Shown: positions 9,172 through 15,735 of the stretch, piece after piece
Numbering within the stretch: position 1 is the first letter of the stretch
How the letters are laid out: every line of letters begins with the position of its first letter
Source: Armatimonadota bacterium
GTDB taxonomy: Bacteria > Bacteroidota > Ignavibacteria > OLB7
Direction: 5' to 3'
Length of the DNA stretch: 55,763 nucleotides
NCBI GenBank assembly: GCA_020850315.1
Contig: JADZEY010000119.1
Span: forward strand, 1 to 55,763
The notes under the pieces: generated by a model
Told to the model about the DNA's origin: nothing
Database searches by the model: none
What the model saw: the letters and a program-made list of their open reading frames with translations, nothing else
Position numbers and translations under genes: made by a program

Positions 9172-9963
9172 TCACCGTTCCACTGAATCCGCCGCCCCGC
9201 TTGCGCCGCGCTGGATTGCTTGCAAGATCGTCAGCGCAGCCAGGCCGGCACCGAAACCGTTGTCAATGTTCACCACGGTGATCCCCCCGGCACAGCTTGT
9301 CAGCATTGCCATCAGCGGGGTGAATCCGCCAAGCGCGGCCCCGTAGCCAACGCTAACCGGAACGGCAATCAGCGGCTGCGGGAACATCCCCCCCACCACG
9401 CTTGGCAACGCACCTTCCATTCCGGCCACCACAATCAGTACCGTGGCTTCGGCAATCCGCTGTTGCTGGCCCAACAATCGGTGCAGTCCGGCAACGCCAA
9501 CGTCGTAGATGCGATCCACCGCCGCGCCAAATGTTTCCAGAGTGATGCAGGCTTCCTCGGCCACGGGGCGGTCGCTGGTTCCGGCAGCAACCACCGCAAC
9601 CCGCCCGGGAAACCAGATCGGCATCGGCTGGCCAATCCGAATCGTTCGCGCAATCGGGTGATACTCACCCGGCAATGCGGCAAGCACCACCGCAGCTGCT
9701 TCCGGGGAGCAGCGGGTCCCAAGCGCCAGCCCGTGATGCTGGAACAACGCGCGTGCAATCGCCAAAATTTCTTCCGGGGTTTTCCACTGGCAGAGCATCG
9801 CTTCCGGGAAACCGCGCCGCCGCACACGGTCGGTGTCCACCTTGCCAAACTCCTCAACGTCAACCGCAGGCTCCATCCCCTGAAGTTGCTGGGCCGCCGC
9901 GTCAATCGGCATCATACCGCTGCGAACGGCTTCTAACATCTGCAGCAATTGCTCCTGGGTCAT
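9172..9963 (-). CDS. larB: Nickel-pincer cofactor biosynthesis protein LarB (pyridinium-3,5-biscarboxylic acid mononucleotide synthase)
   Basis: LarB carboxylates nicotinic acid adenine dinucleotide and hydrolyses the phosphoanhydride, the first step to the nickel-pincer nucleotide. The 263-residue protein has a helical N-terminus (1-55) and a PurE-like domain with VVAAGTSDRPVAEEA (124-138), VAGMEGALPSVVGGM (179-193), PVSVGYGA and LTSCAGGITVVNIDNGFGAG (221-240). C224 corresponds to the cysteine implicated in the L. plantarum enzyme. Its start overlaps the larE stop by 4 bp, so larE-larB are one coupled unit. No larC lies in the window, and 190 bp separate it from the folate-type genes downstream. 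Confidence 0.93.
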   Translation of the reverse strand: MTQEQLLQMLEAVRSGMMPIDAAAQQLQGMEPAVDVEEFGKVDTDRVRRRGFPEAMLCQWKTPEEILAIARALFQHHGLALGTRCSPEAAAVVLAALPGEYHPIARTIRIGQPMPIWFPGRVAVVAAGTSDRPVAEEACITLETFGAAVDRIYDVGVAGLHRLLGQQQRIAEATVLIVVAGMEGALPSVVGGMFPQPLIAVPVSVGYGAALGGFTPLMAMLTSCAGGITVVNIDNGFGAGLAALTILQAIQRGASGAADSVER

Positions 9964-10793
9964 CGCGAAGGGAGTTGGATGTGAGTAAGGGTCTCGTTCA
10001 ATGCCCCCGACCGGAAGCCGCGCAAGTCCAGCGAAACATAGGCGTAGCCCACCGCACGCAGGGCATCATCAATTTGGGAGGAAAGCTGCAATGCACGTTG
10101 GAAATCCTTTGGTGGAAGCTCAATCCGCGCCACCTGGTCGTGGTGGCGCACCCGCAGCTCGCGGAAACCAAGCGTGCGCAGCGAAGACTCAGCTTGGGCG
10201 ATCTTCTCCAAAACCTCGCGGGTGATGCGGGTTCCGTATGGCACGCGGGAAGAAAGGCACGGAGCCGACGGCTTATCGTGGTTTGGCAGGCCGTACAGCG
10301 TGGCCAGCTGGCGGACCTCAGCTTTGGTGATGCCAAGCTCCATCAGTGGCGATTTCACCCCCTGCTCGGCTGCGGCTTGGCGGCCCGGGCGGTAGTCGCC
10401 TGCGTCGTCGGCATTGCTTCCATCCAGCACGGCGGCGTATCCGGCTTCCTGGGCCACGCCGCGCAACCGGACGTAGAGCGCGTCCTTGCAGAAGTAGCAG
10501 CGATTGGTTGGATTATCGGCATAGCTGGGGATGTCAAGCTCGTTGTAATAAAGCCATTGATGGGCAATCCCCAACTGCTCGGCAACCTCTGCTGCAAGCA
10601 AAAGGTCATCGTTGGTGATTGTCTCGGTGACGGCTGTCACCGCCAATGCCTTTTCGGGAAGGGCGGCATGGGCAGCCGCAGCCACCACGCTGGAATCAAC
10701 CCCAGCCGAATAGCCAACCACTGCCGAGCCGTAGCTGGCAATCAGCGATTCAAGTTGGGAGCGAAGGTCGGTAGAAGTAGAGCGGTTCATCAT
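9960..10793 (-). CDS. larE: Nickel-pincer cofactor sulfur transferase LarE (PP-loop)
   Basis: LarE adenylates the LarB product and converts its two carboxylates to thiocarboxylates. The 277-residue protein carries the PP-loop SAGVDSS (29-35), a CYFC pair (C99, C102) in NRCYFCKDALY, DGSNADD (124-130), and C179 in KPSAPCLSSRVPYGTRIT. In L. plantarum only the last cysteine is present and is sacrificed; enzymes with three cysteines, as here, belong to the group reported to bind a [4Fe-4S] cluster that supplies sulfur catalytically. It overlaps larB (ATGA) and is divergent from lgt. M1 or M2 could be the start; no Shine-Dalgarno is visible. Confidence 0.93.
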   Translation of the reverse strand: MMNRSTSTDLRSQLESLIASYGSAVVGYSAGVDSSVVAAAAHAALPEKALAVTAVTETITNDDLLLAAEVAEQLGIAHQWLYYNELDIPSYADNPTNRCYFCKDALYVRLRGVAQEAGYAAVLDGSNADDAGDYRPGRQAAAEQGVKSPLMELGITKAEVRQLATLYGLPNHDKPSAPCLSSRVPYGTRITREVLEKIAQAESSLRTLGFRELRVRHHDQVARIELPPKDFQRALQLSSQIDDALRAVGYAYVSLDLRGFRSGALNETLTHIQLPSR

Positions 10794-12889: not shown

Positions 12890-12909
12890 AGTAACTGGAC
12901 TACGTTGCA

Positions 12910-12946
12910 GGGGCGTGGCATGAGGTGCCATGCCCCTGCTTTTTTT
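12910..12946 (+). terminator. Rho-independent terminator
   Basis: Stem ggggcgtggca (12910-12920) pairs with tgccatgcccc (12926-12936, one G-T pair) around the 5-nt loop tgagg, followed by eight T residues (12939-12946). It ends the lipoprotein gene and abuts the convergent gene, whose stop codon lies in its T-tail. Confidence 0.9.
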
Positions 12947-13848
12947 TACACATCCACCCAAGTATATCCACTCTCTGTTTTTTTCAGAGGTATGTTTTCG
13001 GCCACAGCATCAAGGTTGATTGGGCCGTAGATGTGCGGGAAACGGTCGTTATCGGCAGGCTCGTACAGCAGGCGGTGCGCCAGCCGCGAAGGATCAATCC
13101 GCAGCACCAAAACCTCTGGAATTTCGCCATAAAATTTATTTAGCGAACGCTGAAGTTGGCGCGATAGCGAGCAGTGGATAAATCCCTCACTCTGGAGCGA
13201 TGGCGCGGTATATTCGCCGTTGGCCAATGCCATTTTCCATGCTTCCGGGGTGGTGATGTGATACAGCCGCACCGATTGTTCTTCTTCCGTAACCATTGTT
13301 GATTTCATTCCAAGGTCTTCCGGTATCAGCGAAAATATGTGGAGGTTGCGCGAGCGTCCATGAAGCCAAATTCGGTTGCGCAGAATCCCTTCCAGCGTTG
13401 CCCCAGATTTTTGGGCAACCCGATAGCTTGCGTTGTTGCCATCAACCATCACAATATCCACCCGATTTAATCCTTCGGCAAACGCCAACCGTGCCATCAG
13501 CAAGGTTGCGGCGGTGGCAATGCCTTGCCGGGTTGCGGATGTGCGTACCCAATATCCCAGATTGGCAAAACGATTCGCCCGATGAATTTGGTTGATCCCT
13601 ACCCCACCTAAATAGCGGCCTGTGGCAGCGTCTTCAATCAAAAAATTGAACTCGGTTCCGGCATCCCATGCTTCGTGGCAATGGGCAATCCAGGATTGGC
13701 TATCCTGCAAAGCATATTGCGGGTGACACCACGGCATCCAAGGCCAGATTTCGGCAATGGATTCCGTTGCTGCCTGAAATAATGCTTCGGCATCATCGCT
13801 GCGGTAGCGGCGGATGGTGATGGTTCCGTCGGTTGCTTCTGGCTGCAT
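12946..13848 (-). CDS. Fusion: GNAT N-acetyltransferase (RimJ/RimL type) + DUF952
   Basis: The 300-residue protein joins two families in one uninterrupted frame. Residues 1-180 are a GNAT domain: ITIRRYRSDDAEALF at the start, the acetyl-CoA loop RQGIATAATLLM (107-118), and NNASYRVAQKSGATLEGILR (138-157), a RimJ/RimL signature. Residues 194-288 are DUF952: RLYHITTPEAWKMAL, GEYTAPSLQSEGFIHCS (211-227) and RFPHIYGPINLDAV (269-282). A Met at 182 could allow separate translation of the second half, but I see no stop or ribosome site. DUF952 has no established biochemical role that I know of. The substrate of either half is unknown. Confidence 0.86.
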   Translation of the reverse strand: MQPEATDGTITIRRYRSDDAEALFQAATESIAEIWPWMPWCHPQYALQDSQSWIAHCHEAWDAGTEFNFLIEDAATGRYLGGVGINQIHRANRFANLGYWVRTSATRQGIATAATLLMARLAFAEGLNRVDIVMVDGNNASYRVAQKSGATLEGILRNRIWLHGRSRNLHIFSLIPEDLGMKSTMVTEEEQSVRLYHITTPEAWKMALANGEYTAPSLQSEGFIHCSLSRQLQRSLNKFYGEIPEVLVLRIDPSRLAHRLLYEPADNDRFPHIYGPINLDAVAENIPLKKTESGYTWVDV

Positions 13849-13899: not shown

Positions 13900-15735
13900 T
13901 TAACTCCCCCCCCGCAACGCCCTGATTTTTGCGCGAGCCTGCACCACCCAGCGCGAGCGGGGATAATCGTTGAGCAATCGGGTGTACAGTTCGGCTGCTT
14001 TTTGGGGATCGCGCAGGGCTTGCTCGGTTAGCTGGGCGGCGCGGAACAATGCGCGGTCGGCCAACGCGCCATCGGGGTAGCGGGCAACCAGTTGCAGCAG
14101 CGTTTGCAGCGCGCCGGTGCTGTCGCCAAGCGATTCCTGCGACCGTGAGCGGATCAGCAACGCATCGTCGGCAATGGTGCTTTGGGGTGCTTTTGCCACC
14201 ACAGCGTCCATCGCCGTAATGGCTTGCGGATAGTGTTTCTGCAGCACTGCGTAGCTCCCCTCGGCGAACAACTTCAATGCCTCGTCGTTCTTCTCGAAAT
14301 TTTCCTGAAGGATCAGCAGGTAGTCCAGCGCGTCGTTGGTTGCGTCGCTTTTGGTGTTTTGGGTCAGCTGGGTGAACGCTTCCACAGCGGGCTGGAACTG
14401 GCCGGAATAGAACAGCGACTCGGCATAGCGCAAGGCGTGAAGGTCGCGCAATCGCTCGGCATCGCGGCCAACGCTACCTGCGTCGCGGCCCTGCAGAAAG
14501 ACATCTTGCGCTTCTTTCAATTTTCCGGTTTGCATCAGCAACTCACCCTCCAGCAACAGCCCTTCGGCTTTTGCAGAAGTATTCCGCGTGGCCAGTAATT
14601 CTTTCAGCGTGGCAAGCGCGGCTTCCGGTTGGCCCAGGTCGTTGGATTGCAGCCGCGCAATCTGCAGCAACGCCTCCCCCACCAACGGCCCGTTCGGAGT
14701 CTCGGCCACGATTGTGCGATACCGCCCCACTAACTCGGCAGCTTGCTTCGGATCCCCTGCTCCAACTTCGTGGTAACGCGCATCCAAGGCGCGAGCGTAG
14801 GTATAAAGGGCACTTAGGTAGAGCGGATTGCTCCGGTTGAACTGCGCAAGAAAATACTCCAACGCTCGGATGGCCGTTTGATACCGCGAAGTACGGAACG
14901 CACGGTCGGCAAAGGAATAGATGTTGGAGCCATTGGCGTGGCGGGCTTCGTCCAACTGTTTGGCAACCTCGAAGGCTCCATCATCATCGCCGGCCTCGGT
15001 GTAGAGCCAGGAAAGAAGCTCCATGTAGGGAACGTAGTCCGGGCGGGAATCGGCGTAGCGTTTGGCAACGGTAATCGCACCGCGCACTCCTTCGGGGGTG
15101 GAGGTGATGGTGGAAAGCCCCCCCATCACCATACTTAGCCGTGCGGGGTTTTCGGCAAGCAGTTGCAGGTATTCTTGGGCGGCATCTTCAAACCGTCCGG
15201 TGATCCCAAAAAGCTCGGCAAGCTGATCGGCAAAGGTGCTTGTTCCGCCAATGGCTTCCCGCCCCTGCTTGTAGGTGGCCACTGCCAGCGCGAACTCCCG
15301 AACATCAGTTTGGCTTTGGCCAACAACAAGGTAGGTCATCGGGTCTTGCGGGCGAAGGTCAAGAGTTTTTGCCCACTCAATCCGTGCTTGGTCGCGTTGG
15401 CCGGTGCGGTGCAGAAGCTGGGCATGAAGGGCGCGGATGTCAATATCGTTTGGGTGAGACTCCGTCCGTTGGGCCACAATCGGCAGCAGTTCTTTGAACT
15501 GAAGCATCGCCATCAACGTCCGCCGGACACCTTCAAAGTAGATGTTGGATTGCGGGTCGGCTTCGTGAAGCTCCAGATAGACTCGCGCAGCGTTTTTCCA
15601 ATCGCCACTTTCCTCGTACCCCTGCGCCAACTTGTAGCGGCGGTCTTCCTCGCTGGGCTGGGCACGCAATGGAGCCGTGGCCACTGAAAGCATTGCGGCC
15701 ACGACAAGCAAGGGATATGTGGATTTAGGGGTCAT
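13900..15735 (-). CDS. Secreted TPR-repeat protein
   Basis: The 611-residue protein has an N-terminal signal peptide (hydrophobic 9-22, PLRAQ cleavage near 26). The rest is built from tetratricopeptide-type helix pairs: KLAQGYEESGDWKNAARVYL (35-54), further units around 95-240 and 270-340, and a clear C-terminal series ending DPQKAAELYTRLLNDYPRSR. It is therefore a periplasmic or surface scaffold without a visible enzyme domain. TolA-associated YbgF/CpoB proteins have similar C-terminal repeats but are shorter. The gene starts 8 bp before a 7-bp tandem repeat array, which separates it from the upstream M24 peptidase gene. Confidence 0.82.
   Translation of the reverse strand: MTPKSTYPLLVVAAMLSVATAPLRAQPSEEDRRYKLAQGYEESGDWKNAARVYLELHEADPQSNIYFEGVRRTLMAMLQFKELLPIVAQRTESHPNDIDIRALHAQLLHRTGQRDQARIEWAKTLDLRPQDPMTYLVVGQSQTDVREFALAVATYKQGREAIGGTSTFADQLAELFGITGRFEDAAQEYLQLLAENPARLSMVMGGLSTITSTPEGVRGAITVAKRYADSRPDYVPYMELLSWLYTEAGDDDGAFEVAKQLDEARHANGSNIYSFADRAFRTSRYQTAIRALEYFLAQFNRSNPLYLSALYTYARALDARYHEVGAGDPKQAAELVGRYRTIVAETPNGPLVGEALLQIARLQSNDLGQPEAALATLKELLATRNTSAKAEGLLLEGELLMQTGKLKEAQDVFLQGRDAGSVGRDAERLRDLHALRYAESLFYSGQFQPAVEAFTQLTQNTKSDATNDALDYLLILQENFEKNDEALKLFAEGSYAVLQKHYPQAITAMDAVVAKAPQSTIADDALLIRSRSQESLGDSTGALQTLLQLVARYPDGALADRALFRAAQLTEQALRDPQKAAELYTRLLNDYPRSRWVVQARAKIRALRGGS

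What the first reader, a model, noticed from the sequence alone, without database searches (positions are those of the whole stretch)
12946..13848. GNAT acetyltransferase fused to DUF952
DUF952 has no known function that I can name. Its covalent link to a RimJ/RimL-type acetyltransferase offers a functional clue: it may recognise the acetyl acceptor or reverse/modify the product. The fusion is continuous and both halves keep their family motifs.
Basis: partly seen in the sequence, partly recalled or inferred. Interest (0 to 1): 0.55.

Follow-up and report, generated by a model that had tools for sequence, protein, structure and literature searches.

The report
Acetyltransferase fused to ADP-ribosyltransferase-fold domain
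A gene in an uncultured Chlorobiota-like bacterium makes one protein that joins an acetyl-transferring enzyme to a small domain of unknown function whose fold is that of ADP-ribosyltransferases; the join is real and kept in a sister species, and it hints that this orphan domain works beside enzymes that modify amino groups.

Summary
Window 12946-13848 (-) is one uninterrupted 300-aa frame with Pfam Acetyltransf_3 (10-150, E 1.4e-23) and DUF952 (198-284, E 3.7e-24). It is not an indel artefact: a separate assembly of a sister species has the same fusion, 83% identical and gap-free, with dN/dS near 0.12 in the GNAT half, 0.11 in DUF952 and 0.30 in the linker. The fusion is narrow: 2 of the 5 genomes held of its family have it, 2 have stand-alone DUF952, 1 has none. 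The model of this copy matches CC0527 (Z 16.2), then the NAD+ lobe of tRNA 2'-phosphotransferase Tpt1 (Z 9.7). A second fusion of DUF952 to a GNAT-fold enzyme, an arginyl-tRNA-protein transferase (ATE), lies on a Bernardetia plasmid. In ten loci of one Bacteroidota family DUF952 follows RimK and aspartoacylase genes. Stand-alone DUF952 genes are not generally next to RimL-type GNAT genes. Best reading: a bifunctional enzyme, an amine acetyltransferase plus an ART-type domain acting on NAD+ or another adenosine ligand. NAD+ use and substrate are untested. A new architecture of two known families.

The parts
12946..13848 (-). whole fused gene, 300 aa, ATG start, TAA stop
   Evidence: same length and gap-free in the sister species
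13318..13848 (-). GNAT half, residues 1-177 (Acetyltransf_3 at 10-150)
   Evidence: Pfam 1.4e-23; 2fck phmmer 6.7e-17; dN 0.067, dS 0.56 against the sister
13267..13317 (-). linker, residues 178-194; Met181 kept in both species, perhaps the former start of a separate DUF952 gene (inference)
   Evidence: 8 of 17 residues identical, dN 0.27, dS 0.89
12949..13266 (-). DUF952 / ART-fold half, residues 195-300; family-invariant F223, H225, Q231, E263, H272 and the H197-I-T199 motif all present
   Evidence: Pfam 3.7e-24; 23-row alignment; model pLDDT 83, CC0527 Z 16.2 and Tpt1 Z 9.7
13900..15735 (-). TPR-repeat protein directly upstream on the same strand (about 50 bp gap); order M24 peptidase - TPR - fusion also found in the sister
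12907..12939 (+). 15-pair terminator-like hairpin with T run between the convergent substrate-binding-protein gene and the fusion gene
   Evidence: consensus scan only

Best explanation
A genuine bifunctional protein. The N-terminal GNAT domain transfers an acetyl group from acetyl-CoA to an amino group of a protein or small molecule. The C-terminal DUF952 domain is a minimal ART-superfamily module, similar in size and fold to the C-terminal NAD+ lobe of Tpt1; it most likely binds NAD+ or another adenosine-containing ligand through its H-x-T strand and does chemistry with its invariant His, Gln, Glu and His, on the GNAT's substrate or on the next compound of the same pathway. SHOWN: the single frame; conservation and purifying selection of both halves; the ART fold of the DUF952 half (model and homology); presence of all family invariants; a second GNAT-fold partner (ATE) elsewhere. 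INFERRED: NAD+/adenosine binding, catalysis by DUF952, a shared substrate.
For: Both domains over curated cut-offs in one frame. Sister species: no gaps, 249/300 identical, dN/dS about 0.12, 0.11 and 0.30 for GNAT, DUF952 and linker. Gene order M24 - TPR - fusion kept. DUF952 invariants F, H, Q, E, H in 23 of 23 aligned rows, this copy included; most of the other rows are stand-alone proteins of about 100-120 aa, as expected of an enzyme rather than a bare tether. Fold: CC0527 Z 16.2, then Tpt1 Z 9.7 (rmsd 2.8, 91 aligned); the later listed rows are also ART-type proteins. SCOP places CC0527-like in d.166.1.7 beside Tpt1/KptA (passage, PMC3000352); Pfam ART clan (passage, PMC7955679). Tpt1 and diphtheria toxin hold the adenosine 2'-OH with the H and T of HGT (PMC6333775); this copy has H-I-T at the first strand. 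Separate ATE_C-DUF952 fusion in Bernardetia; ATE1 contains a GNAT fold (PMC10115844). RimK - AstE/AspA - DUF952 gene order in ten loci.
Against: No NAD+ binding or activity is shown for any DUF952 protein in the papers seen. Profile-profile comparison with Tpt1 is not significant (probability 1.2, E 0.044). The Tpt1 arginine of the RQHVHLS strand is not matched (E221 lies there in that weak alignment). The first-strand His is not universal (19 of 23 rows; Lys in CC0527 itself and in two alphaproteobacterial rows). The GNAT half was modelled poorly (mean pLDDT 48 for the whole), so no domain interface or shared site can be argued. RimL-type GNAT genes were absent from the 105 flanking ORFs of 31 stand-alone DUF952 loci. 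The fusion was found in one genus only.
Confidence: 0.4

Rival explanations
1. DUF952 is a ligand-sensing regulatory domain (NAD+, ADP-ribose or a nucleotide) that switches the acetyltransferase on or off, as ACT domains do in ACT-GNAT enzymes.
For: Precedent of amino-acid-regulated ACT-GNAT fusions in actinobacteria (start of abstract of PMC5861322 seen in the listing); ART fold with an H-x-T first strand.
Against: Strictly invariant polar residues (23 of 23 rows) in a family that is mostly stand-alone small proteins suggest catalysis.
Confidence: 0.25
2. Near-neutral tethering: two neighbouring genes merged by loss of the GNAT stop; each half keeps its old, unrelated job.
For: Confined to one genus; the variable linker begins near a conserved Met181 that could be the old DUF952 start; stand-alone homologues of both halves exist without linkage.
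Against: The fusion has outlasted a dS of about 0.7 with both halves constrained, and a second GNAT-fold partner (ATE) was joined to the same side of DUF952 elsewhere.
Confidence: 0.22
3. One reading: DUF952 recognises the acetyl acceptor, or reverses or modifies the acetylated product.
For: Position at the C terminus of two GNAT-fold transferases would suit a substrate-recognition add-on.
Against: The ART fold has no deacylase chemistry that I know of (recalled); stand-alone DUF952 is common without a RimL-type GNAT nearby.
Confidence: 0.1
4. Artefact: a sequencing or assembly error joined two genes.
For: None found.
Against: Same gap-free fusion in a separate assembly at 83% identity.
Confidence: 0.01

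Closest known systems
DUF952 (PF06108), Caulobacter CC0527 (2O0P, 2O0Q, 2JQN)
   Same: same family and fold; 84.9 bits; model Z 16.2
   Different: CC0527 is a stand-alone protein of about 115 aa with Lys in place of the first-strand His; here the domain is C-terminal to a GNAT
Tpt1/KptA tRNA 2'-phosphotransferase, C-terminal NAD+ lobe
   Same: fold (Z 9.7, rmsd 2.8, 91 residues); H-x-T first strand; [VI]-H-x-S second strand
   Different: no winged-helix RNA lobe; the Arg-His-Arg-Arg tetrad is not apparent; sequence profiles do not match significantly
RimL/YdaF-type N-acetyltransferases (2FCK, 1NSL)
   Same: GNAT family, 44.5-65 bits in phmmer; family names other than GNAT recalled
   Different: far below the RimL equivalog cut-off (41 against 184 bits); carries a C-terminal ART-fold domain
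ATE-like arginyl-tRNA-protein transferase fused to DUF952 (Bernardetia sp. Wsw4-3y2, WP_338791038.1)
   Same: GNAT-fold transferase followed by DUF952 in one chain
   Different: different GNAT-fold family, aminoacyl-tRNA donor instead of acetyl-CoA; one record only
ACT-GNAT regulated acetyltransferases of actinobacteria
   Same: GNAT with a fused ligand-binding domain (start of abstract only, PMC5861322)
   Different: ACT domain and amino acids, not an ART-fold domain

Membership tests
GNAT (Acetyltransf_3, PF13302) | profile score over the curated cut-off | tested here: met
   84.5 bits against 25.4
GNAT (Acetyltransf_3, PF13302) | acetyl-CoA loop Q/R-x-x-G-x-G/A (recalled motif) | tested here: inconclusive
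   T106-R-Q-G-I-A111: G and A present, first position is Thr; the close stand-alone homologues likewise
GNAT (Acetyltransf_3, PF13302) | acetyl transfer activity | not testable with these tools
   needs an enzyme assay
RimL equivalog (NF007539) | score over the equivalog cut-off | tested here: not met
   41 bits against 184; not filed as RimL
DUF952 (PF06108) | profile score over the curated cut-off | tested here: met
   84.9 bits against 23.7
DUF952 (PF06108) | residues invariant in 23 aligned members (F, H, Q, E, H) | tested here: met
   F223, H225, Q231, E263, H272; this copy is one of the 23 rows
ADP-ribosyltransferase superfamily | ART fold | tested here: met
   model pLDDT 83; CC0527 Z 16.2, Tpt1 Z 9.7, other ART-type proteins below
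ADP-ribosyltransferase superfamily | H-G-T-like adenosine-binding first strand | tested here: inconclusive
   H197-I-T199 here; His in 19 of 23 and Thr in 10 of 23 family rows
ADP-ribosyltransferase superfamily | NAD+-dependent transfer | not testable with these tools
   needs an assay
Tpt1/KptA (PF01885) | Arg-His-Arg-Arg tetrad and RNA lobe | tested here: inconclusive
   a GNAT domain stands where Tpt1 has its RNA lobe; the tetrad Arg of the NAD+ lobe lies opposite E221 in a weak alignment; PF01885 is not among the protein's Pfam hits at E 0.01

The most novel reading that the evidence does not exclude
DUF952 is a free-standing NAD+-lobe-type ART module that repeatedly teams with enzymes that build or cut amide bonds on amino groups (RimL-like GNAT here, ATE in Bernardetia, RimK plus aspartoacylase in one Bacteroidota family). 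In the fusion, acetylation and ADP-ribosyl transfer act on one target, giving a dual acetyl/ADP-ribosyl modifying enzyme and a function for an orphan family.
Probability: 0.13. Interest if true: 0.75.

Novelty: new variant of a known kind. Interest (0 to 1): 0.4.

Why it matters
DUF952 occurs in several bacterial phyla and has a solved structure but, in the papers seen, no known function. A conserved covalent partner gives a concrete, testable lead: assay the fused and split halves with acetyl-CoA and NAD+. The two GNAT-fold fusions and the RimK/aspartoacylase gene order point the same way, to modification of amino groups on peptides or proteins, and would turn an orphan ART family into part of that chemistry.

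Tried and rejected
Rejected: sequencing artefact (sister genome). Rejected: filing the GNAT half as RimL. Rejected as a general rule: 'DUF952 genes neighbour GNAT genes' (31 loci with about 1.5 kb on each side, 105 ORFs; an HMM of RimL-type GNATs found none at E up to 10; the Pfam scan lists only 25 of 55 families, none of them an acetyltransferase, so GNATs of other types in single ORFs are not excluded).

Led nowhere: defence-system models (0 hits for three proteins); viral contigs searched with the fusion, with two DUF952 alignments and with a GNAT alignment (no relatives), and with a third DUF952 alignment, which gave one DUF952 in a viral contig, not next to an obvious GNAT (ORF reading only); a 23-row DUF952 tree (14 of 20 inner branches open), so the origin of the fused copy is unresolved, although its nearest rows by path after the sister copy are the stand-alone copies of the same family; profile comparison with Tpt1 (not significant); full-length model (GNAT half too poor for an interface). 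In the structure comparison of the whole model the listed rows were CC0527 entries and GNATs. A chance estimate for two GNAT-fold partners among the DUF952 fusions found was not made: the sample is small and not random. Other phyla could not be sampled by whole genome (handles exist only around the window's genome), and the single scan of named genomes was made with the whole fusion protein, which finds close relatives only, so wider absence of the fusion is not shown.

Full report
OBSERVATION. The window has one open frame of 300 aa at 12946-13848 on the minus strand. hmmscan places Acetyltransf_3 at residues 10-150 (E 1.4e-23) and DUF952 at 198-284 (E 3.7e-24), both well over Pfam's cut-offs. 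By sequence the halves also match solved structures: RimL-like 2fck (E 6.7e-17) and CC0527 2o0q (E 6.4e-7).

REAL OR ARTEFACT. A separate assembly, the Chlorobiota MAG contig JAEUSP010000078.1 (locus L051; the contig has the same length as the one in genome G001, so I take these as one genome), encodes the same 300-aa fusion without a gap, 249 of 300 residues identical. Nei-Gojobori dN and dS are 0.067 and 0.56 (GNAT), 0.117 and 1.08 (DUF952), 0.27 and 0.89 (17-residue linker). Both halves are therefore constrained and the linker is loose; no confidence limits were computed. The order M24 peptidase - TPR protein - fusion gene is kept; the TPR-to-fusion gap is about 50 bp in the window and 480 bp in L051. 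Met181 is kept in both species and may be the start of a former separate DUF952 gene (inference).

HOW FAR IT SPREADS. Of the 5 genomes held of the window's family, 2 (one genus) have the fusion, 2 have a stand-alone DUF952 (53-55% identical to the fused domain) and 1 has none. In a draw of 395 genomes of the phylum, 59 have DUF952 at E up to 0.001, and only the window's genome shows a frame longer than 169 aa at that place (the sister genome was not in that draw). In 391 genomes of the class, no listed match other than the two of this genus covers both halves; the listing was cut before the end. The closest GNAT relatives (44-49% identical) are stand-alone; three of their loci were read and none has DUF952 within the DNA held. 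In 72,556 plasmid records no place covers 80% of the fusion.

WHAT DUF952 IS. The family is already classified as an ADP-ribosyltransferase fold: SCOP d.166.1.7 'CC0527-like', listed beside d.166.1.5 Tpt1/KptA (passage of PMC3000352), and Pfam's ART clan (passage of PMC7955679). I tested this on the window's own copy: the domain modelled from three sequences reached pLDDT 83 and pTM 0.80, and aligned to CC0527 at Z 16.2 (rmsd 2.0, 108 residues), then to Aeropyrum Tpt1 at Z 9.7 (rmsd 2.8, 91 residues, Tpt1 residues 92-185, its NAD+ lobe); the other rows shown are further Tpt1 entries, enterotoxin and cholera A subunits, DarT and Rhs toxins of the Tre type (that the last are ART-type is recalled). 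Z values below about 8 alone would be weak; the consistency of the list is the argument. Tpt1 and diphtheria toxin bind the adenosine 2'-OH with the His and Thr of an HGT motif (PMC6333775, section 8 and passages); this copy reads H197-I-T199. Against a close kinship with Tpt1: profile-profile comparison is not significant, and the tetrad arginine of the NAD+ lobe is not matched in that weak alignment. In 23 aligned DUF952 rows F223, H225, Q231, E263 and H272 (window numbering) are invariant, and the window has all five; the first-strand His is present in 19 of 23.

OTHER PARTNERS. Of 16 plasmid records with a DUF952 match I opened 11, and also the one matching phage-collection record. Two of the 11 carry DUF952 as the C-terminal part of a longer protein: Bernardetia sp. 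Wsw4-3y2, ATE_C (E 4.9e-18) followed by DUF952 (E 2.8e-17) in 353 aa, and Catenovulum adriaticum, about 100 aa without a Pfam family over its cut-off followed by DUF952. Long upstream open frames in three loci (L098, L099 and the phage-collection locus L059) look like chance extensions in GC-rich DNA, judged by eye. ATE1 contains a GNAT fold (passages of PMC10115844), so two different fusions put DUF952 behind a GNAT-fold transferase. ATE-like relatives found in 395 genomes of the phylum lack DUF952: no listed match spans both parts, and in the nine loci whose frames I read I saw none.

NEIGHBOURS. I took 105 ORFs of at least 300 bp around 31 stand-alone DUF952 loci (about 1.5 kb each side). 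An HMM of 21 RimL-type GNATs found none. The Pfam scan (25 of 55 families shown) found AstE/AspA in 10 and RimK in 9; domain scans of three such loci (L026, L043, L049) and one RimK ORF (L037) agree with the order RimK - AstE/AspA - DUF952, followed by an M28-like or a diacylglycerol-kinase-like ORF. By the coordinates and the families these are ten loci of one family (f37). Elsewhere DUF952 lies just upstream of pyrD in Sinorhizobium (annotated) and, by my reading of the ORF, in Methylobacterium, and divergently from an Acetyltransf_CG gene on a faecal scaffold. A published survey reports operons that link RimK-like R2K ATP-grasp ligases with GNATs, and others that hold an ADP-ribosylglycohydrolase (passages of PMC4431377); that is a loose parallel, not evidence about DUF952.

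MECHANISM. The best-supported reading is a bifunctional protein: an amine acetyltransferase plus an ART-type domain that binds NAD+ or another adenosine ligand. I prefer catalysis over pure regulation because the invariant polar residues are kept in a family of mostly stand-alone small proteins. A regulatory role and simple tethering remain open. NAD+ use, substrate and any coupling of the sites are not shown; the full-length model was too poor in the GNAT half to judge.

LITERATURE. DUF952 occurs in 4 papers of the library searched; I saw passages in three of them and only the listing of the fourth; none of the three passages gives it a function or mentions a GNAT fusion. A search for CC0527, PF06108 and COG3502 added one relevant paper (PMC3000352). 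Most subscription journals, and preprints, are not covered, so absence from print is not claimed beyond these searches.

VERDICT. Confirmed observation; interpretation improved by placing DUF952 among ART-fold domains; a new architecture of two known families, of moderate interest.

Noticed in passing
L023-L027, L031, L033, L037, L043, L049 (unnamed Bacteroidota-phylum genomes, family f37): DUF952 directly downstream of AstE/AspA and RimK genes in ten loci, followed by an M28-like or diacylglycerol-kinase-like ORF.
   Followed up: partly
L053:3278-4339 (Bernardetia sp. Wsw4-3y2 plasmid NZ_CP147018.1): Arginyl-tRNA-protein transferase (ATE) domain fused to DUF952, annotated only as DUF952 protein.
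   Followed up: partly
L054:3704-4315 (Catenovulum adriaticum NZ_CP109967.1): About 100 aa without a Pfam family over its cut-off fused in front of DUF952.
   Followed up: no
L057:3989-5421 and L058:3995-5454: DUF952 gene overlaps the start of pyrD by a few bases in Sinorhizobium and Methylobacterium, suggesting an operon with dihydroorotate dehydrogenase (the second by ORF reading).
   Followed up: no
L059:3632-4351 (MT835822.1, faecal scaffold): DUF952 gene divergent from an Acetyltransf_CG GNAT gene.
   Followed up: partly
window 9172-10793 (-): AIR-carboxylase-like and ATP-pyrophosphatase-like genes overlap; recalled as the LarB-LarE pair of nickel-pincer cofactor synthesis, not tested.
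   Followed up: no
L079, L080: RimL-type GNAT matches in open frames of 383 and 287 aa, possibly other GNAT fusions.
   Followed up: no
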